Part shown: positions 15,108 to 41,215 of the stretch, in pieces
Position numbering within the stretch: position 1 is the stretch's first letter
Layout of the letters: every line of letters starts with the position of its first letter
DNA from: Nymphaea colorata
Lineage: Eukaryota > Streptophyta > Magnoliopsida > Nymphaeales > Nymphaeaceae
Assembly (NCBI RefSeq): GCF_008831285.2
Contig: NC_045140.1
Coordinates: forward strand, 1,653,528 to 1,717,527
Direction of reading: 5' to 3'
DNA: 64,000 nt
Translations under genes and position numbers: made by a program
Notes under the pieces: generated by a model
Databases searched by the model: none
The model's input: the letters and a program-made list of their open reading frames with translations, nothing else
Told to the model about the DNA's origin: nothing

Positions 15108-16533
15108 TGAGTCGAATTCAGATTGTGAAATCAAATTTCATATTGGAATTCAGATATGACTCTTGCTCGTTCATATTCGAATCTAAATATGTGAATATCC
15201 AAAAAAGTGGATTCAGATTAAGAGTATATCTGTTTTGAATTTGATTCATTGATATCCATAGTCTCAAGGGGGTTGGTTTCAATAGTTTCCAAGAGACACA
15301 ATTCCACATCAGATGCAATATTTTCCTTCCTCCCTATCATGCTGGCTTGCAGCTATGGCTAGATCAAAAACCTTGTACACTAAAAAGCTAGATACATCAA
15401 TGTTGCCATGACCGGAAACTTCCTCTAGCTTAGTTATTCCTGAAAATCAACCTGATTTTGTTCAAAATTCAGGTTTGAACTCAGATTGCGAAATCAGATT
15501 TCATATTAGAATTCAGATATGACTTTTGCTTGTTCATGTTCGAATCTAAATATGTGAATATTCGAAAAAGCGGATACAATTAAGAATATATCTGTTTTGA
15601 ATTTGATTCATTGACATCCACGGTCTCAAGAGGGTTGGTTTCAATAGTTTTCAAGAGACTTAATTCTACATCAGATGCAATATTTTCCTTCCTCCCTATC
15701 ATGTCGGCTTGCTGCTATGGCTAGATCAAAATCCTTGTACACTAAAAAACTAGATACATCAATGTTGCTACAATCGGAAACTTTCTCTAGCTTAGTTGTA
15801 TTCTCTCTTAAAATCAACCAGATTCTGTTCAAAATTCAGGTTCAAATTCACATTGTGAAATCAGATTTCATACTAGAATTCAGATATGACTTTTGTTCAT
15901 TCATATTCAAATCTGAATATGTGAATATCCGAAAAAGCAGATACAGTTAAGAGTATATCTGTTTTGAATTTGATTCATCCACATTCATAGTCTCAAGTTT
16001 CCATCGTTTCCAAGAGACTCAATTCCACATAAGATGCAATATTTTTCTTCCTCCCTATCATGCTGGCTTGCAGCTATGGCCAGAACAAAAATCCTTCTAC
16101 ACTAGAAAGCTAGATACATCAATGTTGCTACAATCGGAAACTTTCTCTAGCTTAGTTGTATTCTCTCTTAAAATCAACCAGATTCTGTTCAAAATTCGGG
16201 TTCAAATTCATATTATGAAATCAGATTTCATACTAAAATTCATATATGACTTGCTCATTCATATTTAAATTTGAATATGTGAATATCCGAAAAAGCAGAT
16301 ACAGTTAAGAGTATATCTGTTTTGAATTTGATTCATTGACATCCATAGTCTCAAGAGGATTGATTTCAATAGTTTCCAAGAGACTCAATTCCACATCAAT
16401 GCAATATTTTTCTTCCTCCCTATCATGCTGGCTTGCAGCTATGGCCAGATCAAAAATCCTTCTACACTAAAAAGCTGGATACATCAATGTTGCTACGATT
16501 GGAAACTTCCTCTAGCTTAGTTGTATTCTCTCT
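15108..16533. repeat. Four-copy tandem array, ~361-bp unit
   Basis: A unit of about 360 bp is repeated four times. The anchor TCCCTATCATG falls at 15331, 15693, 16052 and 16417 (spacings 362, 359 and 365). Each unit holds a GAATTCAGATATGACTT segment, GAATATGTGAATATCCGAAAAAG, TCCAAGAGACTCAATTCCACATC, and an AAAAAGCTAGATACATCAATGTTGC block. Copies differ by scattered substitutions and small indels, so they are not recent. The fourth copy runs straight into copia pol sequence at 16534. Open frames of 60-91 codons inside two units are equivalent stretches and match no family. The unit may be a retroelement LTR or leader fragment amplified by unequal crossover, but I cannot identify it. Confidence 0.85.
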
Positions 16534-17005: not shown

Positions 17006-17454
17006 TAGTATTCCTTCAAGAACTTGATAGACTTTGTTAGATCTCATGCTTGATTCGAGTAAACTCATGATAAAAGCCTAACCTTGTTGCCACCGATATG
17101 AGATAAAGCCGATCGGTTCCTCTGGCAGTGGACAGGTCGATGGACACCGAGAAAAACTAAGCTTTGACAGTCCCATTCAAACAAAGAAAATAACATCACA
17201 AGAGAAAGAAAGAAAAAAGGCAACAAACATAAGAACGAACCAGAAAAGGAAATAGAAAGAGATAGAGGACATGCCCAATTTCATCATTTTTCTTATTTTG
17301 TTGCAGTGGAAAATCTGATCACTCTATGGAGGTGAAGTTTTCTCTGACAAAAGCTCCATCCGACTTCTGATTTCTCCTCCCCCGTGTTTCAAGGTTTTTC
17401 CTCTAGTGGAGTCGAGTTCATGTGAGTCGAATTTAATTTTAAACTCGAGTCGAG
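17006..17454. other. Intergenic flank of the young copia insertion
   Basis: No gene seen. It includes a short GAAAGAAAGAAAAAAGG purine run (about 17200-17220). The last bases (TCGAG, 17450-17454) form the left target-site duplication of the copia element. Confidence 0.5.
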
Positions 17455-17836
17455 TGTTGAGAAGTATGCAATGAGAAAAAACAGAGATTGCAAGTGAAGG
17501 AAAAACTGTAAGACAGTAATTACGTGGTTCGGCTTGAAGCCTACATCCACGAGAGAAAGGGAACTCTTCTTCATTGTGTTTTTTTTCACACCTTTACAGC
17601 AGGGGTACACCCCATTATATAGGTTTCACTTATAAGATTGAGATAGGAACAGATTTTTAGGGATTAACAAGAATCTTCAGTTGCTGCCGTTAGAGATGCT
17701 CCTTGATCACGACAATCTTGGTGTGGATGATTTGATGAGGAACACACACCAGATCAGCGTCCAATCTTCTCCCAAAAGTGGTAGATCTTCTAATATCTCT
17801 TTACGAGATTTTCGTCCCATCTCTTTGTAACTAACA
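17455..17836 (-). repeat. 3' LTR of the copia element
   Basis: 382 bp, read as base-for-base the same as 22561-22942. It is the 3' LTR because the element runs on the minus strand. The ends are TGTTAG...CTTCTCAACA on the minus strand. Confidence 0.96.
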
Positions 17837-17849
17837 GTCTCCCCCTCAA
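17837..17849 (-). other. Polypurine tract of the copia element
   Basis: On the minus strand TTGAGGGGGAGAC lies directly against the 3' LTR. It is the RNase H-resistant primer for plus-strand DNA synthesis. The gag-pol stop codon TGA (17846-17848) overlaps its start, so coding sequence and tract share bases. Confidence 0.85.
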
Positions 17850-20800
17850 GTTGGCGTGCAGATATCGATCTGCCCCAACTTGTGTATAATGAATGTATGA
17901 CGATCTCTTCCAAGAGATTTTGTAAGAATGTCAGCAAGTTGAAGTTCACTTCTGACGTGTGGTGTTATAATGGTTCCATCCTGTATTTTTTCTCTGATGA
18001 AATGGCAATCGACTTCGATGTGCTTAGTACGTTCGTGAAAAACTGGATTTGCTCCAATATAGATAGCAGCCATGTTGTCACACATTAACCTCATGGGCTC
18101 CTCTACTTCAATCTTCATATCTTTCAATAATGCTTTTATCCATACTAATTCACACGTACATGACGCCATAGCTCTGTATTCTGCCTCTGCACTTGATCGG
18201 GCCACAACCGATTGTTTTTTACTTTTCCAAGTCACCAAGTTTCCTCCGACAAAAGTACAGTATCCTGTTGTAGATTTTCGATTGTTTGGATCCCCCGCCC
18301 AATCAGCATCACAGTAACCAATGACATCCATTTTCTGATCTCGTTTCATCACGATCCCTTGTCCAGGAGTTCTTTTTAAGTATCTCAAGATTCTGTGAGC
18401 AGCTTCAACGTGTCTTGACTTTGGGTTGTGCATAAATTGACTTACCAGGCTGACAGCATAAGTGATGTCTGGTCGAGTGACGGTCAGGTATATGAGCTTC
18501 CCAACCAATTTCTGAAAACTTTGAACATTTTCAATTCCTTCTCCTTCATCTTTCTTCAATTTGCAATTTATCTCAAGAGGTGTGTCTGCAGCCTTTGCTC
18601 CCAGGCATCCAGTTTCCTTTAAGAGGTCTAGAGTATATTTTCTTTGGCATATAAAGATTCCATTTTCTGAGTGCGCCACCTCTATACCCAAGAAGTACCG
18701 TAGGGTTCCAAGGTCTTTTATTTCAAATTGCTGATTGAGATAAGTTTTGACGTGTACCATGAACTCTTTATCATCACCTGTCAATATGATGTCATCTACA
18801 TAAACAAGTAGAATAGTTATTTTTGAGGATCGAATAGCAACAAACATTGTATAATCAGCGCTGCTACGCTTAAATCCAATCTTAGTTAGTGCTTCACTTA
18901 GGCGTGAAAACCACGCTCGAGGGGACTGCTTAAGGCCGTAAAGAGCCTTTTTTAGTTTGCACACATACCCTTTCTTATGTTGTATGCCTTGAGGGACTTC
19001 CATGTAAACTTCTTCATTGAGTTCTCCATGAAGAAAAGCATTCTTGACATCAAGTTGTGCTAGTTTCCACCGTTTGATTGAAGCAACTGAAAGAAGAGTT
19101 CTTACTGTATTCATCTTAGCGACTGGAGCAAAGGTTTCATTGAAGTCTACTCCCTCAGTTTGAGTGAAACCTTTTGCAACGAGGCGAGCTTTGTACCGTT
19201 CGATAGTTCCATCACTGTGATATTTGATCTTGTATATCCACTTACATCCGACGACTTTCTTCCCTTCAGGCAGTGGCACTATCTCCCAAGTTTGATTTTT
19301 GTTCAACGCGGACAACTCTTCTTGCATAGCTCTCTGCCAGCTTATGTTTATATTAGCTTCCTCATAGTTTTTTGGCTCATGATGAGAGTAGGTATTGAGA
19401 ACATAGGACTTGTATGGCTTTGATAAGGTATTGAAATTGATGTAGTTTTCTATGGAGTGGTTGTGTTGAGTCGATAAATAGGTATAAAAGTCATTCAGTT
19501 TTGATGGTGGTCTAGAGGGACGGGTTGATCTTCTAAGGGTTGGTTCAATGCTTTGATTTTGGTCAGACAACAGTGGCTGCAAATCTTGGTTTAGGTTACT
19601 CTCTTGGTTTTGGTTTTCTAAGATGGTAGGTTCACTAGGTTGCTGGTTTTGGTTTTTGGTATGAGTTTGAAAAACATCAACAAGAGGAAGAGAGAGAGGA
19701 GCTAGAGCAAGAGGAGCAGTAACAGAGCTAGTGCCTTGATCTTGAGTCTCCCCCTGACTTGGTGCCTCATAATAGGATTCATTCTCAAAGAATTTCACAT
19801 CCCGAGTTACAAAAAACTTTCTTGATTTTGGGTCAAAGCATTTGTAGCCACTTTTCTTGCTTGAGTACCCAAGGAAGATGCATTTCAAAGCTCGCTTTTC
19901 AAGTTTGTTTCGAAATCTCTCTTGTATATGCACAAAACATTTACACCCAAAAATTCTTAAATGTCTAATAGAGATTGTTTTGTGCATTAGAACTTCAAGA
20001 GGAACTTGATTTTCAATACTAGAACTGGGAATTCTATTAGCAAGATAGCAGGCAGTACCAACTGCTTCTGCCCAAAAAACTTGAGGTACGTTCATATGCA
20101 TCATAAGGGCACGGGCAATATTAAGAAGCTGTCTGTTCTTTCTTTCTGACACCCCATTTTGTTGGGGAGTCCCTGAACATGTAAGTTGAGGTTGTATCCC
20201 TTTTTTGTTCAGGAATTCCTCAAACTGTTGGTTCACATATTCCCCCCCATTATCAGATCGAAGCTTCTTAATTTTTGCACCATACTGAGTGTATACCAAA
20301 TTGTAATAATCTTGAAAAACCTTAACAACTTCACTTTTATTTCTAAGAAAAAATATCCATGACATGCGAGATTTATCTTCGATAAAAGACACATAATACC
20401 TGTATCCCGTATTGGATTCCACAGGAGCTGGTCCCCACACGTCTGAATGTACCAAATCAAAAAAATCCGTAGATCGATCAGTGGATGTTTGAAACGGCAG
20501 CCTAGTTGACTTCGAATATTCGCAAGCATCACAAGAGTGTTCATTAATGGTGACATTAGGAACACGTATTTTCAAGCTTCTGTCTGAAATATGCCCAAGT
20601 CTTGCATGCCACATCTGGTATTCTTGCCTCTTCTTTTCATTATTGGTGTGTACTAAGAAGCTTGACTCTGGAGTCTCCACCATATAAAGCCCATTTTGTT
20701 CCCGTCCTCTACCAATCTCCCTCTTCGTTTCCAGATCCTGAAATATCACATTCTTGGGAGAGAAAACAGCCATACAATTGTAAGTCTTTGTCAACTTGCT

Positions 20801-22060
20801 AACTGACATCAAACTAGTGGAGAGATGTGGTACATAAAGAACTGAAGATGATTTATTTTCAAAAAAAGAAAATTTTCCAGTTCCATCAACTGCAATATGT
20901 GATCCGTCAGCTGAGAAGACGGATTTTTTGTTCATATGATCAATAGTGGTCAGCCTTGTCAGATCATTTGTCATATGATCGGTGGCACCAGTATCAACAA
21001 CCCATATAGATTTACTAGAATGTGTGAGGAGGGCAAGGTTGTTACCTTCAATAGAGTTGCTGACCGGTTGAGAAGAGACGAGGTTCGTTTTTGAGAATTT
21101 TTGGAAAAATTTCTCTAAGTCCTCTTTTGTAACAAAATGAGCAAGATCAACTTGAGGAGTGGTTGTTGCCTTGTCTCTTGCAGGTTTGCCGACGAGTTCC
21201 CAGCATCTTTCTCGAAGATGACCCGTTTTTTTGCAATAAGAACATTTTAGTTTGCTGCGGTTTCGTTGAAAATTTCTGCCACCACTTTGATTTTTTGAAT
21301 CGCCTTTCCATGTCTCGCCTTTCCATGTCTTGGATTCAGATCGAGCTAGACATGCCATCTTCTCTGGATTTTCTTCATATATGTCTGTGGGATTCATAAC
21401 TTTTCTTCTGGTGTCTTCTCTTTGTATTGCTTGGCAAACTTGATTATAGCTTGGCAAGGGAGTGGTCATGAGAATCTGGCTACGAAGATTCTCATAGTCA
21501 GGTCCAAGACCAGCAAGCACTTTAAATATTTTGTCTTCATCGAATCGCTTTTGATAGATCTCAGCATCGGTAGTGGCTGGTCTGTATTGGGCGAGTTCAT
21601 CATACAGGCTGCGAAGTTTGTTTAAGTAGAGGCTGGTTTGCTTACCATCTTTGGTGAGATTGGCAATGTCAAGTTGTAGTTGATAGACGCGGGCAAGGTT
21701 GTTTTGCTCGCTGTACATCTCTCTCAATGTATCCCATATTTCCTTCGCTGTTTCCTTGTATAGAAATAAACTAGATATGTGAGGTTCCATAGAATTCATA
21801 AGCCAAGCCATTACCATATCATTCTCAGATTCCCAATCTTCATAGTTGGGATCGTTCTTTGCTGGAGGTGTGATTCGTCCACTGATATATCCTACTTTGG
21901 ATCGCCCGCTTAAGAATAGACGGGCAGCTTTAGCCCAACTGAGATAATTGGTGTCGTTGAGGAGAATAGAAGTGATCTTGAGCGTCCCATGGCTCTGATC
22001 GTGTCCTCCTTTCATACTGCTGGAATTTCCGCTAGATTGGTTACTAGACGTATCTGCCAT
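17846..22060 (-). CDS. Copia gag-pol polyprotein, intact
   Basis: A 1404-aa single-frame polyprotein that would package, cleave, copy and integrate the element. Domains in order: an N-terminal gag region (NDTNYLSWAKAARLFL near residue 35) and a CCHC zinc knuckle (CSYCKKTGHLRERC, about 272-285). The aspartic protease has DTGATDH (about 354). The pre-integrase HARLGH zinc motif lies about 490-500, and the integrase core has HSDVWGP (about 541), DNGGEY (about 601) and a later SERKN Glu (about 638), a D,D,E set. The reverse transcriptase runs from WIYKIKYHSDG through FAPVAKMNT to YVDDIILTG (about 1088). RNase H has DADWAGD (about 1251) and SSAEAEYRA (about 1293). Gag and pol are fused without frameshift, as is usual for copia. 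All visible catalytic motifs are present. The ATG at 22060 lies about 490 nt after the primer-binding site. Confidence 0.96.
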   Translation of the reverse strand: MADTSSNQSSGNSSSMKGGHDQSHGTLKITSILLNDTNYLSWAKAARLFLSGRSKVGYISGRITPPAKNDPNYEDWESENDMVMAWLMNSMEPHISSLFLYKETAKEIWDTLREMYSEQNNLARVYQLQLDIANLTKDGKQTSLYLNKLRSLYDELAQYRPATTDAEIYQKRFDEDKIFKVLAGLGPDYENLRSQILMTTPLPSYNQVCQAIQREDTRRKVMNPTDIYEENPEKMACLARSESKTWKGETWKGDSKNQSGGRNFQRNRSKLKCSYCKKTGHLRERCWELVGKPARDKATTTPQVDLAHFVTKEDLEKFFQKFSKTNLVSSQPVSNSIEGNNLALLTHSSKSIWVVDTGATDHMTNDLTRLTTIDHMNKKSVFSADGSHIAVDGTGKFSFFENKSSSVLYVPHLSTSLMSVSKLTKTYNCMAVFSPKNVIFQDLETKREIGRGREQNGLYMVETPESSFLVHTNNEKKRQEYQMWHARLGHISDRSLKIRVPNVTINEHSCDACEYSKSTRLPFQTSTDRSTDFFDLVHSDVWGPAPVESNTGYRYYVSFIEDKSRMSWIFFLRNKSEVVKVFQDYYNLVYTQYGAKIKKLRSDNGGEYVNQQFEEFLNKKGIQPQLTCSGTPQQNGVSERKNRQLLNIARALMMHMNVPQVFWAEAVGTACYLANRIPSSSIENQVPLEVLMHKTISIRHLRIFGCKCFVHIQERFRNKLEKRALKCIFLGYSSKKSGYKCFDPKSRKFFVTRDVKFFENESYYEAPSQGETQDQGTSSVTAPLALAPLSLPLVDVFQTHTKNQNQQPSEPTILENQNQESNLNQDLQPLLSDQNQSIEPTLRRSTRPSRPPSKLNDFYTYLSTQHNHSIENYINFNTLSKPYKSYVLNTYSHHEPKNYEEANINISWQRAMQEELSALNKNQTWEIVPLPEGKKVVGCKWIYKIKYHSDGTIERYKARLVAKGFTQTEGVDFNETFAPVAKMNTVRTLLSVASIKRWKLAQLDVKNAFLHGELNEEVYMEVPQGIQHKKGYVCKLKKALYGLKQSPRAWFSRLSEALTKIGFKRSSADYTMFVAIRSSKITILLVYVDDIILTGDDKEFMVHVKTYLNQQFEIKDLGTLRYFLGIEVAHSENGIFICQRKYTLDLLKETGCLGAKAADTPLEINCKLKKDEGEGIENVQSFQKLVGKLIYLTVTRPDITYAVSLVSQFMHNPKSRHVEAAHRILRYLKRTPGQGIVMKRDQKMDVIGYCDADWAGDPNNRKSTTGYCTFVGGNLVTWKSKKQSVVARSSAEAEYRAMASCTCELVWIKALLKDMKIEVEEPMRLMCDNMAAIYIGANPVFHERTKHIEVDCHFIREKIQDGTIITPHVRSELQLADILTKSLGRDRHTFIIHKLGQIDICTPT

Positions 22061-22548
22061 GGCAGGAAATCACTTGATGACAGGAGATATTTAAAAACAA
22101 TGGACTACTCCTTTCCGGATTCTCAAAAAAATCCCACCGATATCAGTCCCATGAGAAGAGACTAAAAAAAACAGAGTTGCACAAATGTAAGCAGCGACTA
22201 ATTCTCAAAAAAGTCATTTAACGGACTTACGCAGAAAATCCATTGTCCTCTGTTCATTTCAACGAGTGTCTGCCTCTGTTCTCAACAAATAAATCACAAT
22301 GGAAAAAAAAAAATTTCTTCAGATTTTTTTTTCCGTTACCGGGGACCTTGCCGACTGGTGGAGCTCCAATCAAAAACGAGAAACGAGGTTGGCAGGAGAA
22401 GATGGCAGCGAGGAAGGGTGAGATGGGCTAAATCGACATCTCTTACGATGATCTTTTAGGCGTTGCAGAGCAGACTTGATTGGATCGCCCCATTGCTGAA
22501 AAAAACTTAGAATTCCTTTTGCAGCGGCTCCTCACGAATCATCTCCAA

Positions 22549-22560
22549 GCTCTGATACCA
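22549..22560 (-). other. Primer-binding site (initiator-Met tRNA)
   Basis: TGGTATCAGAGC on the minus strand, directly after the CA end of the 5' LTR. It is the standard copia primer-binding site, complementary to the 3' end of cytosolic initiator methionine tRNA, where minus-strand DNA synthesis starts. Confidence 0.93.
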
Positions 22561-22942
22561 TGTTGAGAAGTATGCAATGAGAAAAAACAGAGATTGCAAG
22601 TGAAGGAAAAACTGTAAGACAGTAATTACGTGGTTCGGCTTGAAGCCTACATCCACGAGAGAAAGGGAACTCTTCTTCATTGTGTTTTTTTTCACACCTT
22701 TACAGCAGGGGTACACCCCATTATATAGGTTTCACTTATAAGATTGAGATAGGAACAGATTTTTAGGGATTAACAAGAATCTTCAGTTGCTGCCGTTAGA
22801 GATGCTCCTTGATCACGACAATCTTGGTGTGGATGATTTGATGAGGAACACACACCAGATCAGCGTCCAATCTTCTCCCAAAAGTGGTAGATCTTCTAAT
22901 ATCTCTTTACGAGATTTTCGTCCCATCTCTTTGTAACTAACA
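22561..22942 (-). repeat. 5' LTR of the copia element
   Basis: 382 bp, TG...CA ends, identical by eye to the 3' LTR. It holds the element's promoter and starts at the TCGAG target duplication. Confidence 0.96.
22721..22728 (-). promoter_or_regulatory. TATA box of the copia LTR promoter
   Basis: CTATATAA on the minus strand within the 5' LTR. About 30 bp downstream (near 22690) would be the U3/R boundary and transcript start. The same box in the 3' LTR (17615-17622) would drive outward minus-strand transcription, away from the second transporter gene. Confidence 0.6.
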
Positions 22943-23329
22943 TCGAGCTCAACTTGTTGAACATCGCGAATCCAAATACGCTTCCACAACGAAAAACATC
23001 TGGGAAAAAGCAGCTGGTACGGTGCTTTTTTATCATTCATCTCATTCCACATGTACAGAGATAAATGGCTTTTTCAAAAAGAATACTACCGTGAATCACG
23101 ATAGGTAGTTACAAGACGGCATAAGAAGAGAAATAATATCTATCACAAGGAAAAACTCGTCACCAACGTCTGAATAAGAATCTCCACGTGGAATGCAAGA
23201 GATAAAGATGACCCTGCCTATGTTCAGTTCATCTCTCAACAGTCTTTTACGGATCGAGTGCCATCTTCTGGGATAAGCGTCGGCACGGAGAAACAGTGAG
23301 AGGTTTGGTGCTTCGTCTGAGTTTTAACA
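22943..23329 (+). promoter_or_regulatory. Upstream region of LHT copy 2, with G-box
   Basis: The 387 bp between the copia element and the ATG are all that remain contiguous of the gene's upstream DNA. They contain a perfect palindromic G-box, CCACGTGG (23184-23191), a bZIP/bHLH/ABA-type binding core in plants. The stretch 23013-23135 is similar to 12765-12892. No clear TATA box is seen. Older promoter sequence now lies beyond 5.5 kb of transposon. Confidence 0.55.
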
Positions 23330-26300
23330 ATGGCGGACTCTGCTGATAATGTGAAGTCCCTTAGCATTGAGAACGGTGATGACGAATTGGATAAATGGCT
23401 TCCAATCACCGCGAATCGGAACGCTAAATGGTGGTACTCAGCCTTTCACAACGTTACGGCCATGGTTGGTGCAGGAGTGCTCAGCCTCCCTTACGCCATG
23501 TCCCAACTTGGATGGTATTATCTACGTACACTTTGTTCCTTCCATCATCATGTCATACGGATTTCTTCATGTAGATCTGAGCATGTCAGAAATCAAAGAT
23601 CGTTCGCAACTTCGCCTCCATGCATGCCCTCAAATTCAATCACAGATCTTGCATCGCATTGTCTTTTGAATCATCTTGTATGAGTTATCATTAGATGAAC
23701 TGCTTGAGCAAGTGAAACAAAGGGAGTGCATAAATTAAAGTTGCAGAATAAACCAATGAAACCTCTGATGACTATAACTATCATGCATGAAGAACTCAGT
23801 TCCTTGTTTTCTTTTCTTTTTCCTCTTTTCGATATTGCATGGTAGAAACCTTTGGGTTAGTTCGAATGTAGATCTATATGGGTAGCTGGTGCATGACTTG
23901 CCTCCGTATAAATTTATATCTGAAGGGTAAGTGATTGGCATAATGAGCAGAGCACCAGGCTATTAAAGGCTTTTAGATGGGGAGTCACGCTTGAATTCCA
24001 GCCATGGTCGTCAGTGATAGTGAACTCCAAAGCTATAGATAGGTATACACCGTCGTTCTGATAGATCACGTAATCTCTAATTAAGAGATCTTGCCGCGGC
24101 ATGTAAAAGCTCAATGGCAAGCTCTTGTTTTTTAATGCATCTGCTACATATTTCCAAATAGCTGCTTCCACTTCATTCGCTACAATTTTTCATATTTCTT
24201 AGAATATAAAATCTTCGTTTACGTTACTAAAAGGCAAGTATATATGTACTTTCCTATAACTAGTGCTGAACATGTTCTAGTATTTTAACAATTGAACCTG
24301 ACAGTGGTTGCTGTTCCATGTCCTTTTCAAGTTGAAGTATGATTTGTTTGGGCAACAAGTGCTCCGCTCGAGGCTTCACATCACTAAGGGGTTGAGTTTG
24401 AAGACCTTATAGTTGAAAAAAGATGCCCAAGAAGGAGAGGAAAGACAAAAAAAGACAAATGATTTTCTCTGTTGTTGATTTACAGGGTGCCTGGAATTAC
24501 AGTGCTACTGTTGTCATGGATCATTACCTTGTACACCTTGTGGCAAATGGTTGAAATGCATGAGATGGTGCCAGGAAAGCGATTCAATAGGTATCATGAG
24601 TTAGGGCAGCAAGCCTTTGGGAAGAAGCTTGGCCTTTACATTGTCGTGCCGCAACAGCTCATTGTCGAAGTCGGGATAAACATTGTTTACATGGTCACTG
24701 GGGGGCAGTCTCTGCAGAAAGTCCATGAGACAGTTTGCGGAGAGTGCAAACCCATCCGCCTCACTTACTTCATCCTCATATTTGCCGCTCCACAGTTCTT
24801 CCTCTCCCAATTGCCAAATTTCAACTCAATATCTGCAATTTCATTGACTGCTGCAGTTATGTCTCTAAGGTATGCACGTTGACTACTTAATTATGATTTT
24901 TATTAGTGTCATCTCTAAGGCCTTACCCACATGCCATTATTGGACCATTCATTTTTCTAGTCATTATGAGATGCTACCTATATATATTAAAGCAGCATGA
25001 ATTGGGCATTGTTCAATGGTTCTTCAACATAGTGCACTGTCATGTTTGAACCTTTTTATGAAAAAGGAACTCATAGCGTGAGTTTGAGGTTGTAAATATA
25101 ATTTTCATAGACAAGATTGAACATCCGTGAAGTTTGGTGACTTAATCTACTTAGTTAGTAAAGACAGACAACGGAACTTCAATATCTGAAAAGTCATAAA
25201 ATGTTGTTTAGAAGCGCAAAAAAGCACTTCTAAATTTTTGGCTATTTACTGCTACATTTATAAAATATTTAGAATAAGAAAAAATCATAGTAATAAGATA
25301 TACTTAACTGATTCAATGGATAACGGAAACCACTTAATGCAGAAATTGAAGCCGGATTTATCTGTTCAATGTCCCATGAGTCAGAACTCAGAAGTAGCAA
25401 AGTTATATGTGATTTGAATCCAATCCATTTGCATCTTTACTTTAGTTATAATATGAGCAGTCCAATTTACAATTTGTTCTTATGCTTTATGTTATAGATA
25501 AATGTCTTCCTACATGTGATTGCACTATAGTAGGGTAGACACTGGAGTTCATAAGTTCATATTTTAAGCACATCATTACATGCATAGATGGATTTATAGA
25601 TTCTTTCTACCATTTGTATCAGTTACTCTACAATAGCCTGGGGAGCCTCTGTTCATAAGGGGAAACAACCGGATGTAGAATATGGGCTAAAGGCTTCAAC
25701 AACAGCAGGGACTGTATTCAACGTTCTAAGCGCTCTTGGAGATGTTGCTTTTGCGTATGCCGGTCATAATGTAGTATTGGAGATCCAGGCGTCAATTCCT
25801 TCAACTCCAGATAAACCATCAAAAAAACCCATGTGGAAGGGTGTGGTTTTTGCTTATATTGTAGTTGCGCTCTGTTACTTTCCCGTTGCACTAATTGGCT
25901 ACTGGTACTTTGGAAATGATGTTGCCGATAACATCTTGATGTCTCTCGAGAAACCTCGATGGTTGGTTACAGTTGCTAACATCTTTGTAGTCATCCACGT
26001 AGTTGGAAGCTATCAGGTTGTCATTTCTGTTTCTTTCCCCCTGTTAACTAAATGTTCTGCAATTCTCTTTCTCTGGTCTTCTCTGAGAGTTCAAAACCAA
26101 TGACATACAAGTTTATTTTCCAAGCAGGTATACGCAATGCCAGTGTTTGATATGATAGAGACAGTTTTGGTGAAGAAGTGCCAATTTAAGCCTAGCATGT
26201 TTCTTCGCTTGATTGCACGCAGTTCTTATGTTGGTAAGTTTGCTTCTCCATCCCAGCATTTAATCATTTCTTTCAGAAAATATTTCTCTATCTTAAAAGT

Positions 26301-27017
26301 CTACACTCTGTATCTGTTACATTTATGGCAAATCTGAATAGAATCCGAGTCGACTGTCCAGATATTTGAAAACTAATCTACTCAGATAGATCATGATTAG
26401 TGTGATGTGAGCATGCAATTTTTAAATGGTTGGTGACCCAAGGACATGAAGATAAGGAAAAAGTGATCCCTTTCAAATTGTAAGGGGGGTTTTTTAATCC
26501 GCTTTTTGTGTCTTTATTTTCTTACTGTCCTTGCATCGTACTGCAGCCTTAACATGCATAATTGGTATAATCTTCCCTTTCTTTGGAGGGCTTCTTGGCT
26601 TCTTTGGGGGATTTGCACTTGCCCCAACTTCGTATTTCGTAAGTACAATTACATAAATGCTGTTGTTTTATTTTGTTTAAACTTTAGTGTTAATTTAGAA
26701 TTGGTTCGATGATTCTACAGCTGCCTTGTATCATATGGCTGGCCATCTATAAGCCCAAAAGATTCAGCTTGTCTTGGTTGACAAATTGGGTAAGTTTCCA
26801 TATGCTTAACAATTGATAAGATGATGAGAAAAAAATTACTTAATAAAAAATTTATGTTTCCATGCACCTTCTTGTCATATAAACTGACAACTGAAACGGT
26901 TTCCTTTGTTCATCGTAGATGTGCATCATTCTTGGTGTGCTGCTTATGACTGTATCACCAATTGGAGGTCTAAGACAAATCATCCTCTCTGCCAGGAACT
27001 ACAAGTTCCTTTCATGA
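23330..27017 (+). CDS. LHT-type amino acid transporter, copy 2
   Basis: A second proton-coupled amino acid permease of the LHT subgroup (AAAP family), tandem paralogue of the gene at 7345. Coding exons: 23330-23514, 24486-24869, 25623-26016, 26128-26233, 26547-26638, 26721-26789, 26919-27017, giving 442 aa. Exons 2-7 equal those of copy 1 in length (384, 394, 106, 92, 69, 99); only exon 1 differs (185 against 197). The protein shares [53 protein letters not shown] and [21 protein letters not shown] with copy 1. It differs in the acidic N-terminus and parts of the loops. All introns are GT-AG. It is intact and presumably functional. The nearby copia insertion may have altered its expression; this is inference. 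Confidence 0.95.
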
Positions 27018-30024: not shown

Positions 30025-32885
30025 CTACAGGTCGCACAGCTCCATTTTCCCTTCAACTTCCTTGTAAATTATCCTTGACTCTGCAGCCAAAGCTCTGCTT
30101 TTAGCCATTACGTATCCCGTAAGCTGGTGTTTTTCCGTAGGCATATACTTCTGTGCTCTCTCCGTGTCCCCAAGAAGCAATGCCTCCCTTGCAGGAATCA
30201 CACTTTCCCACCAAAACTCCTTAAGAATACCCTGTATCAACTCCCAATAGCTAATGTCCTTGTAAACTCTAAACACTGTACTAGCTTTAGGCGTCCAGCA
30301 GTACAAGTCCACCCACTCTCTCCCCATGATCTCCAGTAAGCCCTGCACTTGCGGTAGATAGTAATATGGGGCCTTCGTCCATGGCACCCCAAGCTCTGGT
30401 TTCCCATTGTTATAGGGACATTTCACCTCTAATATCCCCACATCAGTGACAAGTCCATCAGGTGACCCACCCACCCAGCCAAATTCTTCCTCATTAGTGT
30501 GGGTAGCGAAACCAAGAACACCTACTTCATGGCCCGTGATGCTTTTGTACCTCTCAATGGCAGCTGCCTCATTAAGGACTCCCCATGTCATGGCAGAGGT
30601 ATTAACGAAAGTAGATACATCCGGTTCAAATACCTTCTCATACCACAGCTCTGAGCGACGGTTTTTCCAAAATCCCAGGGCTGTACTGAAAGAGCTAGTT
30701 GTCAGTTTGTTTTTCCTCAGCTCGAACCACTCAGCTGAGCGCTGGGGAATGTCAACTGCAACTGCAGCAAGAGTCAAGTTCCTAAATTGAAGCATTCGAT
30801 TTCCATTTCTTGGCACCATATGATGGAGCATTCGAAACTCTAGCACGTTGATCTTACTCATACTCTTGATAGCCAATGATCGATGGAAGGCCTTGCCAAT
30901 GGTCCAGACTGATAGATAAAAGTAAACTGTGATAAGCTCATGAAAACAAGAGATCAGAGGAAAAAATGACCAGCCAAAAATGCAGAAAACTACGAGCCTA
31001 ACCAAAAGAACAGGCACATCGTTGGCTGTGACCACCTCTGTTTTAAAAAAACACCAAGGAAGACAAAAACGTGGACTATCTAACAAACAAAGAAACTCCT
31101 AAGAGTGGCACAATTGTCCAAGCAAAGGGATAAGGAATCTTTCAGACTGTCTATTTTCCTTTTCAACAGCACGAATTACAGCTGAAGCACAAGATAATCC
31201 AATTACATGTCATGCCAAGATGTCCTTCCGTTGGGATCTTGATGGTCTGTGATGTTTGGAAAAATTAGGAACCAATATAACAAGAAAATCAGACTTCTTA
31301 TACAACGCCAGAAATGAATATCTGAAAATCTTTTAAACTGTTCTTAGGCCTATATGTCCCATGTGGTGGTTATACTCGAAAACATGGTGATGGTTTGCAA
31401 TATGAAAATTTGAAATATCAGTGGAAGCCCCACAGTTTGATCGAACTAGAATGTCATTCAAGTCATGCAAACCATGTCAGACTGTGACCAGGTAATACAG
31501 TTTATCCTGTCTAGGGTTCCAGATGTTACCTAGCATGACCTAGAACTCCTAGCATTACCATTTTCTAATAACTGCCTGTTTAAGCTAGAAGTTGGCCTAA
31601 GAAAAGAAGCCTTTTACCTTTCATTGTGAGAAAAATATGACCACCAATACAAGTATCGACTTTATCAAGGCCTACTTGAGTAGAATACACTGTTCAATTA
31701 AAGGATAGCCAAAAAAGGGTAAATAAAGAGCATTTTTCACAAATATGTAAGTAGGCTATAGAGTATTTTGTAAATATAGATTTTGAAACACTAAAAGAAG
31801 AAAGTAAATTTAAGCTTCATCATAAATAATGAGTAAACGAAGCTAGGATCCTCAGGAAATGCACATCTTATAACAAAATGAGTAATTCTCCAACTCCTTT
31901 GTCTCATTTTCTCTCTCCTTCCCTCCTTCCCTTCCACCAAGCCATCGACTTTGTTATGCGAACACAACCTAATGAAGTGAATAATTTCCTTCTCAATCAA
32001 GAAGATCAATTACTGACATACTTATGTAGATCTATAGCAAATACCAATAGAAATGCATACTTCATTTATTAGTTAAGTTGTCTTCGTCAAGGTTATCTTG
32101 GGAAAACCTTCAAAACTCAAAAAGTTTAAAAACATACAAAGAATAACAGAACATGCCAGCTAATTTTCTTAAAATTAATAAAGATTCAAAACAGGTTGTA
32201 AGATTTTATAAGAAACGAAAAGAAACAGAACCATACTCTTAAAGGCTAAAGCACATTGTGGAAGGAACTTTAAAAAAAAGGTGAAATATTGCTATAAGGT
32301 TATGGTAATCTTTTTGTAGAGGTATCAAAATATTCTCCAAACAAAAAGGGTGTATCACTCTGCCTTGGTGAAAATATAGCAATATTTTTCAAATACTGTT
32401 CATATATGTGACAGCAGTTCTAACATGGACAATTTAATGGAAAATGGATGACTATCTTGGTTTGAAGTTTTGAACCTTAAATTGGTCTAGGTTTGAGCAA
32501 GATTGACCTGGATCAGAAGTGGCAACCTATGTCAAGAGTCCTGGCAAAAATCCATTTCAGAAGCAAATGGAAGCCACTTGCATGCTACACCCTGTATTGA
32601 AATTATCTTGAACTCGAAGAGCTTGGCCCGAAATTAAGGGAAGTAATGCAGCTGACCCACTTTACGGAGAATAATGCTTGAAAATAACAGCCTTGTACTT
32701 CCATCATTGCACTTCAGCTTTTCCCCCATAGAAAAAACCAATCAAGTGCATCCACACAATTTTAAAAAGGAAAGATAGCACTGCTAGAAAGCAGAAACAA
32801 CAAAAATGAAGTGAAAACAGGCCATATCCTTACCTTTGTGGCATGGGACAAAATCCAATCCTGATACAGTAAAACCACTCGTCAT
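30025..32885 (-). CDS. YqaJ/lambda-exonuclease family PD-(D/E)XK nuclease
   Basis: A predicted DNA nuclease of the restriction-endonuclease-like fold, with the YqaJ viral recombinase domain found in small plant families. Reconstructed as two coding exons on the minus strand: 32834-32885 (ATG, 17 codons plus one base, then GTAAGG) and 30025-30908 (after a CAG acceptor). The junction restores ...PCHK-V-WTIGK in frame, giving 311 aa. Conserved features: RSAEWFELRKNKLTTSSF (residues about 74-91), TWGVLNEAAA with a Glu at 131, GGSPDGLV with Asp 168, EVKCP with Glu 178 and Lys 180 (the D...ExK metal site), and LPQVQGLLE (about 202-210). The basic N-terminal 60 residues, poor in acidic groups, may be an organelle transit peptide (inference). 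The minus-strand frame reading through to 31086 runs into intron. In phage this fold degrades double-stranded DNA ends; the plant substrate is unknown to me. Confidence 0.85.
31087..32833. other. Intron of the nuclease gene
   Basis: Non-coding, AT-rich sequence between the two coding exons (the intron runs 30909-32833). No embedded gene or clear element seen. Confidence 0.6.
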
Positions 32886-39200: not shown

Positions 39201-39256
39201 AGTTATGATGCTTGTACAGAGGTTTGTTTTGATGCTTCTTATTGCTATCTTCAGAC
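36200..39256 (+). other. Presumed leader and 5'UTR intron of FRS gene
   Basis: The FRS coding exon is preceded directly by a consensus-like acceptor (TTGCTATCTTCAG, ending 39254), so at least one non-coding exon must lie upstream. The C/T-rich, less AT-rich segment at about 36120-36560 looks like a plant promoter and leader. The intron would be about 2.5 kb and holds (AC)n runs at 38400-38414 and 38519-38557 and a (TG)n run near 39051-39065. The 162-codon frame at 36224 is not a recognised protein. Confidence 0.45.
38519..38557. repeat. (AC)n microsatellite
   Basis: Imperfect AC dinucleotide run within the presumed leader intron. A shorter run of the same type lies at 38400-38414 and a reciprocal (TG)n run near 39051-39065. 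Confidence 0.85.
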
Positions 39257-41215
39257 ATGGCTCTTGTTGTTGCAAGCGACAATGGAAGTAATGAGAGTGA
39301 TTGTCCTATAAAAGATGTCATTGATCTGGAGGACAGTAGTTTGATACCAAAAGTTGGTATGGAGTTTGATGATGATGTTCATGCATATGAGTTTTACAAT
39401 ATGTATGCTCACAGACAAGGTTTCAGTGTCCGGATTCGTTCATGGGATAAGAACAGCAAAGGGCAGATCACACGTAAGACGTTCGTATGTAACAGGGAAG
39501 GATATACCTTGAGAAAAGGGGGTTCTGCTAGAGTTAGAACTGATGCTAGATGTGGTTGCCTTGCACGAATGATTGTAAAGAAAGGCGCAAATGGCAAGTT
39601 GTATATTGCACAATTTGAACCTACACACAACCATCAAGTTGTTAGTTCTAACAAGGTGAACATGTTGTGGTCACATCGACGAAAAATGCTTTCAGCATAT
39701 GCAGATTTGGCAGAGAAGTCTGGTGTAGGTGTCAAAGATGCATGTACACATTCGGGAAAACAAAATGGTGATAGTAAGGAATCAGCACAGTTACCACTGG
39801 AGTACAGGAACTATTTGAGGAGAAAACGTTCCATAACTCCAAAATATGGTGATGTGGGGGCTCTTTTGCAATATCTACAAGATAAATCTGCAAATGACCC
39901 TGCATTTTTTAGTGCAATACAACTTGATAAAGATGAGCTCATAACAAACATTTTTTGGGCAGATGCACGATCAAGGGCAGATTATGATTGTTTTGGGGAT
40001 GTTGTTTGCTTCGACACCTCTTTGAGAGCTAATAAACACGGCTGGCCTATTGCACTATTTACTGGGGTAAATCATCATAAACAAAGTATTATTTTTGGCA
40101 CCACCTTGTTGTATGATCAGTCTGTTGCATCGTTTGAGTGGTTGTTTAAGACTTTTGAAGGAGCCATGAAAGGAAAACAACCTTGCGTAATATTAACTGA
40201 TCAAGATCAAGCAATAACAAATGTTATACTCAAGGTATGGCCTAATACATCCCATCGGTTGTGTGTATTGCATATCTTTCAGAGTGGTACAAGGCACTTG
40301 GGCCCTGTTTTTAATAGCGGGAATGACCTCAGGAATGACTTCAGCAATTGCTTGTTTCATTGTGATGATCATGATGGGTTCATGTCTGCATGGCAAAACA
40401 TGCTAAAGAAGCACAAAATTGTGGACAATGAATGGTTAGGTAACTTGTTCAAGGAAAAAGAAAAATGGGCATTAGCTTATGGGAGGGACACATTTTGTGC
40501 TGATATGAATGCCACTGAATTAAATGAAAGCATAAATAATCTTTTAAAAAGGTACTTAAACTCAAAGCTGGACATGTTAACTTTTCTCAACAATTATGAA
40601 GAGCTTGTGGATGATCAAAGGAGAGAGGAGTTCAAAGAGGACAATAAAGCAAGAGAAACAGCCCCAGCAATGTTGTACACAAATCTATTGAGAGAAGCTG
40701 CAAAAGTTTACACACCTACAATTTTTGAAATGGTGAGAAAGGAGGCATTGGGTGTTTTGGACTGTAATGTTGACTGTTTGAGTGAAGATGCATACAAGTC
40801 AAAGTATAAAGTCACATCAATGCAGAGTGTTAAGGACCACATTGTTAGTTTTGACTCATCTAATTTCACTATTTCCTGCAGTTGCAAAAAATTCGAGTTC
40901 ATAGGAATTTTATGTTGTCATGCTTTGAAAGTTCTTGATCATCTAAAAGTTAAACAAATTCCAGAACGATACATATTGAAAAGGTGGACAAAAAATGCTA
41001 AAAGTGGTGTAACAACTCATGTTATGGTCCAGACTGATGATGATAAGTTACATTTAGCAGTGCGTTTTAACATTGTACATGATGTTTTGACTAAGCTTGC
41101 AACAAGGGCCTTGAAAAACAAAGAGGCATGCAAGTACCTTGAAGATCAGGCCATGATTATCATAGACGGAGTAGAAAGCATGTTGAAAAAGAATATGGAA
41201 GAAGATACATCTTAG
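39257..41215 (+). CDS. FAR1/FHY3-related protein (FRS), domesticated transposase
   Basis: A nuclear transcription-factor-like protein of the FAR1/FHY3 family, which descends from Mutator-like (MULE) transposases. The founding members act in phytochrome A signalling. It has 652 aa in one coding exon, starting at ATG 39257, because TCTTCAG just before it is an intron acceptor (an in-frame upstream TTG lies in the intron). Domains: FAR1 DNA-binding zinc finger, residues about 35-130 (VCNREG with Cys 78, RCGCLARM with Cys 99/101, THNHQ with His 124/126). The MULE transposase core spans about 245-345, with CFDTS Asp 253, LTDQDQA Asp 315, HRLCVLHIFQ, and a later NESINN Glu near 424. A SWIM zinc finger, ISCSCKKFEFIGILCCHALKVL, lies at about 539-560 (CxC...CxH). 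The length is typical of the family. I see no terminal inverted repeats, so it is a host gene rather than a transposon. Which FRS subgroup it belongs to is unknown. Confidence 0.93.
   Translation: MALVVASDNGSNESDCPIKDVIDLEDSSLIPKVGMEFDDDVHAYEFYNMYAHRQGFSVRIRSWDKNSKGQITRKTFVCNREGYTLRKGGSARVRTDARCGCLARMIVKKGANGKLYIAQFEPTHNHQVVSSNKVNMLWSHRRKMLSAYADLAEKSGVGVKDACTHSGKQNGDSKESAQLPLEYRNYLRRKRSITPKYGDVGALLQYLQDKSANDPAFFSAIQLDKDELITNIFWADARSRADYDCFGDVVCFDTSLRANKHGWPIALFTGVNHHKQSIIFGTTLLYDQSVASFEWLFKTFEGAMKGKQPCVILTDQDQAITNVILKVWPNTSHRLCVLHIFQSGTRHLGPVFNSGNDLRNDFSNCLFHCDDHDGFMSAWQNMLKKHKIVDNEWLGNLFKEKEKWALAYGRDTFCADMNATELNESINNLLKRYLNSKLDMLTFLNNYEELVDDQRREEFKEDNKARETAPAMLYTNLLREAAKVYTPTIFEMVRKEALGVLDCNVDCLSEDAYKSKYKVTSMQSVKDHIVSFDSSNFTISCSCKKFEFIGILCCHALKVLDHLKVKQIPERYILKRWTKNAKSGVTTHVMVQTDDDKLHLAVRFNIVHDVLTKLATRALKNKEACKYLEDQAMIIIDGVESMLKKNMEEDTS

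What the first reader, a model, noticed from the sequence alone, without database searches (positions are those of the whole stretch)
17455..22942. Very young, apparently intact copia between two tandem transporters
Both 382-bp LTRs read as identical, a clean TCGAG duplication flanks the element, the primer site and purine tract are in place and the 1404-aa frame is unbroken with all catalytic motifs. Identical LTRs mean little time since insertion; the element may still transpose and may be polymorphic among individuals. It lies 387 bp upstream of the second LHT start codon.
Basis: partly seen in the sequence, partly recalled or inferred. Interest (0 to 1): 0.7.

Follow-up and report, generated by a model that had tools for sequence, protein, structure and literature searches.

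The report
Young intact plant copia retrotransposon
This is a recently inserted, complete-looking jumping gene of a common plant type sitting just upstream of an amino-acid transporter gene; it is largely ordinary, with one small possible RNA signal next to its second-strand priming site worth a look.

Summary
Window 17455-22942 is a complete Ty1/copia LTR retrotransposon on the minus strand: two 382-bp LTRs with 0 differences, TCGAG target duplication, TGGTATCAGAGC primer site, purine tract one base from the 3' LTR, unbroken 1404-codon gag-pol frame with PR, IN, RT and RNase H active-site residues. It lies 387 bp before the second transporter's ATG, transcribed away from it. Zero differences in 382 bp bounds age only loosely (5% limit 0.30, 0.56 or 1.57 My at three recalled rates). 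Activity and polymorphism are untested: no genome is held. One extra: the last codons form a hairpin abutting the purine tract, the element's strongest 40-nt fold; 1 of 5000 synonymous recodings folds as well, and 1 of 9 relatives examined also has it over the stop codon. It differs from the published inverted repeat around copia purine tracts (PMC2829016). Verdict: ordinary, new member of a known kind.

The parts
17455..22942 (-). Complete Ty1/copia LTR retrotransposon
22561..22942 (-). 5' LTR, 382 bp, the one next to the second transporter
   Evidence: identical to the 3' LTR
17455..17836 (-). 3' LTR, 382 bp
17450..17454 (.). Target-site duplication TCGAG, left copy
22943..22947 (.). Target-site duplication TCGAG, right copy
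22721..22727 (-). TATATAA, candidate TATA box of the 5' LTR
   Evidence: LTR position 216; motif match only
22549..22560 (-). Primer-binding site TGGTATCAGAGC (initiator-Met tRNA type; that assignment is recalled)
17846..22060 (-). gag-pol ORF, 1404 aa, no internal stop
21398..21901 (-). Retrotran_gag_2 (gag)
   Evidence: E 7.5e-15
21203..21244 (-). CCHC zinc knuckle
   Evidence: aa 273-286
20786..21004 (-). Pol_BBD stretch with the protease DTGA motif (aa 356-359)
20507..20692 (-). Integrase N-terminal finger (gag_pre-integrs), H-x4-H-x19-C-x2-C
20204..20455 (-). Integrase core (rve); the two D of D,D,E are here, the E follows just downstream
19772..19984 (-). SH3_retrovirus domain
   Evidence: E 2.4e-29
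18617..19297 (-). Reverse transcriptase RVT_2 with YVDD
17849..18310 (-). RNase H stretch with D, E, D, D residues
   Evidence: no Pfam hit
17847..17882 (-). Hairpin in the last codons, abutting the purine tract
17838..17847 (-). Polypurine tract GAGGGGGAGA
23330..26797 (+). Second amino-acid transporter gene (Aa_trans), downstream neighbour; homology to the first copy traced to 26797, where the slice compared ended (26800)

Best explanation
A single autonomous-type plant Ty1/copia retrotransposon inserted recently, by integrase, between two tandem amino-acid transporter genes. Shown: structure, identical LTRs, target duplication, unbroken frame. Inferred: the LTR promoter (TATATAA) makes a genomic RNA; tRNA priming at the PBS starts minus-strand DNA; the purine tract primes the plus strand; integrase joins the cDNA with a 5-bp stagger. 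It may still be competent and may be polymorphic (not shown). Its 5' LTR now sits 387 bp from the second transporter's ATG in divergent orientation, so U3 could add regulatory sequence to, or displace part of, that promoter (inferred, no expression data). The hairpin before the purine tract probably helps purine-tract primer selection or 3' RNA structure (inferred, weaker).
For: LTR identity, TSD, PBS, PPT; ORF and domains; the integrase piece matches PDB chain 7z0h_W, named Integrase, E 1.9e-10 (that it is the Ty1 enzyme is recalled); transporters on both sides on the + strand; no further copy found in the window.
Against: No expression, extrachromosomal-DNA or population data. Integrase finger spacer shorter than in 5 of 5 comparable relatives. 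The CpG ratio of the element (0.57) is like its immediate flanks (0.59, 0.55), so it adds no independent sign of youth. The polyprotein AUG follows 10 other AUGs counted from LTR position 241 on, so its translation route is not obvious.
Confidence: 0.92

Rival explanations
1. An older insertion whose LTRs were made identical by gene conversion.
For: Identical LTRs alone cannot separate the two.
Against: The frame is unbroken over 1404 codons and the target duplication is perfect; conversion of LTRs would not keep these.
Confidence: 0.05
2. Assembly artefact: one LTR or the internal part filled in from another copy.
For: Identical repeats are where assemblies go wrong; no reads are available here.
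Against: Perfect TSD, clean flanks and correct PBS/PPT order at both junctions.
Confidence: 0.03
3. Structurally complete but already defective, for example in the integrase finger.
For: Finger spacer 19 residues against 25 in L002, L003, L005, L006, L008.
Against: Those relatives are only 36-39% identical over the stretch. The relative with the same hairpin aligns without a gap on the cysteine side; its histidine side is not readable in the same frame, so the spacing there is uncertain.
Confidence: 0.15

Closest known systems
Plant Ty1/copia (Pseudoviridae) LTR retrotransposons
   Same: PR-IN-RT-RH order, single gag-pol frame, TG...CA LTRs, PBS of the TGGTATCAGAGC type, 5-bp TSD.
   Different: No structural difference seen; the lineage (Ale, Ivana, Tork and so on) was not assigned because no reference set was at hand.
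Inverted repeat around the PPT/3' LTR junction (Bousios et al. 2010, PMC2829016; section 8 read, other passages seen)
   Same: Secondary structure directly upstream of the purine tract; in some published elements the left arm also lies in coding sequence.
   Different: There the right arm is inside the 3' LTR and the purine tract is in the loop; here both arms lie before the purine tract, inside the last codons.
Citrus LTR-IRAP primers (PMC7876178, passages seen)
   Same: A printed primer carries CCGAACCACGTAA, which is also in this LTR.
   Different: Only a short motif; no species assignment follows.
TGTT and AACA elements of Rosaceae (PMC5659011, abstract and section 5 read)
   Same: Copia; this LTR also begins TGTT and ends AACA as letters.
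   Different: Those end TG..TT or AA..CA; this one has ordinary TG..CA ends.

Membership tests
Ty1/copia LTR retrotransposon | Integrase upstream of reverse transcriptase | tested here: met
   Pol_BBD, gag_pre-integrs/rve, SH3, RVT_2 in that order
Ty1/copia LTR retrotransposon | Paired LTRs with TG...CA ends and a short target duplication | tested here: met
Ty1/copia LTR retrotransposon | PBS next to the 5' LTR and PPT next to the 3' LTR | tested here: met
Ty1/copia LTR retrotransposon | Catalytic residues of PR, IN, RT, RH | tested here: met
   (read by eye against recalled motifs)
Currently active element | Transcripts, extrachromosomal DNA, new or polymorphic insertions | not testable with these tools
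   no genome is held for the window; no reads or accessions at hand
Sirevirus genus | Multiple purine-tract copies before the 3' LTR (PMC2829016) | tested here: not met
   one place only with five tract patterns in window 17455-19400, minus strand
Bousios-type PPT inverted repeat | Left arm borders the PPT, right arm inside the 3' LTR | tested here: inconclusive
   16-nt arms 81% complementary (17786-17801 / 17912-17927) enclose the PPT, but the left arm does not border it; 31 of 500 base shuffles pair as well
Named plant copia lineage (Ale, Ivana, Tork and so on) | Placement on an RT tree with reference elements | not tested
   no reference set of plant elements in the collections
Tos17-like target choice (ANGTT-TSD-AACNT, as quoted in PMC6911290, passages seen) | Palindromic target consensus | tested here: not met
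   site is TCGAG-TCGAG-CTCAA; only GAG/CTC next to the TSD is symmetric

The most novel reading that the evidence does not exclude
A clade of plant copia elements carries a selected RNA hairpin, written in the last codons of pol directly against the purine tract, that guides plus-strand primer selection or blocks ribosomes or RNase H there. It would be a second kind of PPT-associated structure, different from the published inverted repeat whose loop holds the purine tract.
Probability: 0.3. Interest if true: 0.5.

Novelty: new member of a known kind. Interest (0 to 1): 0.25.

Why it matters
A complete element with identical LTRs 387 bp from an amino-acid-transporter start codon is a good marker candidate and a natural test of LTR effects on a neighbour gene. 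Such insertions are common in plants (general knowledge), so the interest is local. The hairpin, if it holds across the clade, would make a testable point about how copia elements choose their plus-strand primer.

Tried and rejected
Paralogous empty site: the region upstream of the first transporter was compared with the joined flanks. The only strong match (E 2.2e-37) lies inside the first coding exon; a weak one (E 0.15) begins about 45 bp upstream of the ATG. Nothing reaches the insertion point, so the first gene offers no natural empty site.

Relatives: viral contigs gave none by protein, nor did phages. Plasmid records gave four for RT and for IN and three for RNase H; bacterial genome contigs gave four (67 stretches matched a pattern); all are probably eukaryotic DNA in bacterial records.

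Noncanonical TGTT/AACA subfamilies, Sirevirus and Tos17-like target choice were considered and rejected. The Rfam scan at gathering scores and the tRNA scan of the window gave 0 matches. PDB gave no match to the RT piece. A paper search for LHT genes with copia insertions gave 0 papers. CpG depletion as an age signal was uninformative.

Papers: PMC5659011 abstract and section 5; PMC2829016 section 8 and passages; PMC6911290, PMC4032725, PMC5445492, PMC10760457, PMC3601003, PMC3185511, PMC7876178 passages only; every other paper was seen in search listings only.

Full report
Observation. The element is at 17455-22942 on the minus strand. The LTRs (17455-17836 and 22561-22942) are 382 bp with 0 mismatches, and the flanks carry TCGAG on both sides, a match at length 5 only among lengths 3-11. 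The minus-strand primer site TGGTATCAGAGC abuts the 5' LTR and a purine run GAGGGGGAGA ends one base before the 3' LTR. The ORF 22060-17846 has 1404 codons.

Protein content. Five pieces of the frame were scanned with Pfam: gag (Retrotran_gag_2 E 7.5e-15; Retrotran_gag_3 2.8e-12), zinc knuckle 1.7e-7, Pol_BBD 4e-15, gag_pre-integrs 4.9e-9, rve 1.5e-7 (32.0 bits against a cut-off of 32.6), SH3_retrovirus 2.4e-29, RVT_2 5.7e-68; the last piece gave 0 families, but its RNase H residues can be read. The PR motif DTGA, RT YVDD and an ADILTK motif are present, as are the integrase D, D, E residues. The integrase piece matches PDB chain 7z0h_W, E 1.9e-10. Integrase before RT makes it Ty1/copia.

A possible weak point. 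The integrase finger is H-x4-H-x19-C-x2-C. In the five relatives whose match covers both halves (L002, L003, L005, L006, L008; L002 and L003 nearly the same) tblastn puts six more residues in the spacer. The decayed copy in NZ_CP104070.1, the one relative that shares the hairpin below, aligns without a gap on the cysteine side, but its histidine side is not readable in the same frame. This may be a lineage trait or a small in-frame loss; it cannot be settled here.

Age. Zero differences between two 382-bp LTRs gives a 5% limit of 0.30 My at 1.3e-8, 0.56 My at 7e-9 and 1.57 My at 2.5e-9 (rates recalled). 'Young' holds; 'very young' is not forced. The CpG ratio of the element (0.57) is like that of its immediate flanks (0.59, 0.55), while other parts of the window range from 0.33 to 0.85; it adds nothing on age.

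Empty site. Joining the flanks with one TSD copy gives ...AAACTCGAG TCGAG CTCAACTTG....

Neighbourhood. Whether other genes lie between the two transporters was not examined. The effect on the second gene is inferred only.

The hairpin. The last codons (HKLGQIDICTPT, stop) fold into a stem of 15 pairs ending at the purine tract: -19.2 kcal/mol for 17846-17885, z -5.34 against dinucleotide shuffles, 0 of 200 as good. That stretch was chosen after seeing the fold; in the wider 101-nt stretch z is -2.74, 1 of 200. It is the most stable 40-mer of the element's sense strand (next separate one -15.3), though 0.10% of 18,276 40-mers sampled over both strands of the window are as stable. Of 5000 synonymous recodings of these codons 1 was as stable. 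The decayed relative in NZ_CP104070.1 (L001) has a hairpin in the same place with other letters in the upper stem (z -3.37, 1 of 200 shuffles; -16.9, 24 of 5000 recodings); its loop is one base longer, so this is not clean column-by-column covariation. Of the nine loci examined, L001 alone has a strong hairpin over the stop codon. L002, L003, L005, L007, L008 and L017 have weaker best folds near the stop (-8.0 to -13.3); L004, a very different element (30% identical in RT), has a -19.2 hairpin that starts 22 nt after its stop; the reading of L006 ran past its true end and is uninformative. So the hairpin may be a clade feature, with n = 2.

Literature on the hairpin. Bousios et al. 2010 (PMC2829016, section 8 read, other passages seen) describe an inverted repeat around the PPT/3' LTR junction in Sireviruses and almost half of classic copia elements, with the right arm in the LTR, and suggest that it helps to form the correct primer. 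PMC3601003 (passages seen) calls for a systematic search for PPT-containing hairpins. Here both arms precede the tract. An outer pairing with the LTR (17786-17801 / 17912-17927) is weak (31 of 500 shuffles as good). Five searches listed no title or abstract opening about a hairpin wholly upstream of the purine tract in plant copia: 15 of 35 papers listed; 20 of 89; 20 of 20; 4 of 4; 12 of 129. The held library is partial, so this is no proof that it is unpublished.

Verdict. An ordinary, well-preserved, recent plant copia insertion, correctly spotted. Interest is modest, with a small open question in the hairpin.

Noticed in passing
L001, L002, L003, L004 (NZ_CP104070.1, NZ_CP115302.1, NZ_CP115454.1, NC_015657.1): Four 'bacterial plasmid' records carry copia-type RT and integrase; three are 4.6-5.4 kb, about one element long, and one of these (NC_015657.1) is recorded as circular. 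Probably eukaryotic DNA, perhaps element circles, recorded as plasmids.
   Followed up: partly
L005, L006, L007, L008: Contigs in two Streptomyces assemblies and one Solirubrobacter assembly encode copia RT, probably contamination.
   Followed up: partly
15115-16533: Tandem array of a 362-bp unit, 3.9 copies, 89% matches, about 900 bp left of the insertion.
   Followed up: no
22060-22680: Ten AUGs lie between LTR position 241 and the polyprotein AUG on the sense strand; the first opens a 57-codon frame across U5 and the primer site.
   Followed up: no
21300-21330: 15-bp unit repeated 2.1 times inside gag; the unit length is a multiple of three.
   Followed up: no
30028-31086: Minus-strand 353-aa frame with a YqaJ-like recombinase domain, E 2.6e-18.
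   Followed up: no
39242-41212: 657-aa frame with FAR1, MULE transposase and SWIM domains, a transposase-derived gene.
   Followed up: no
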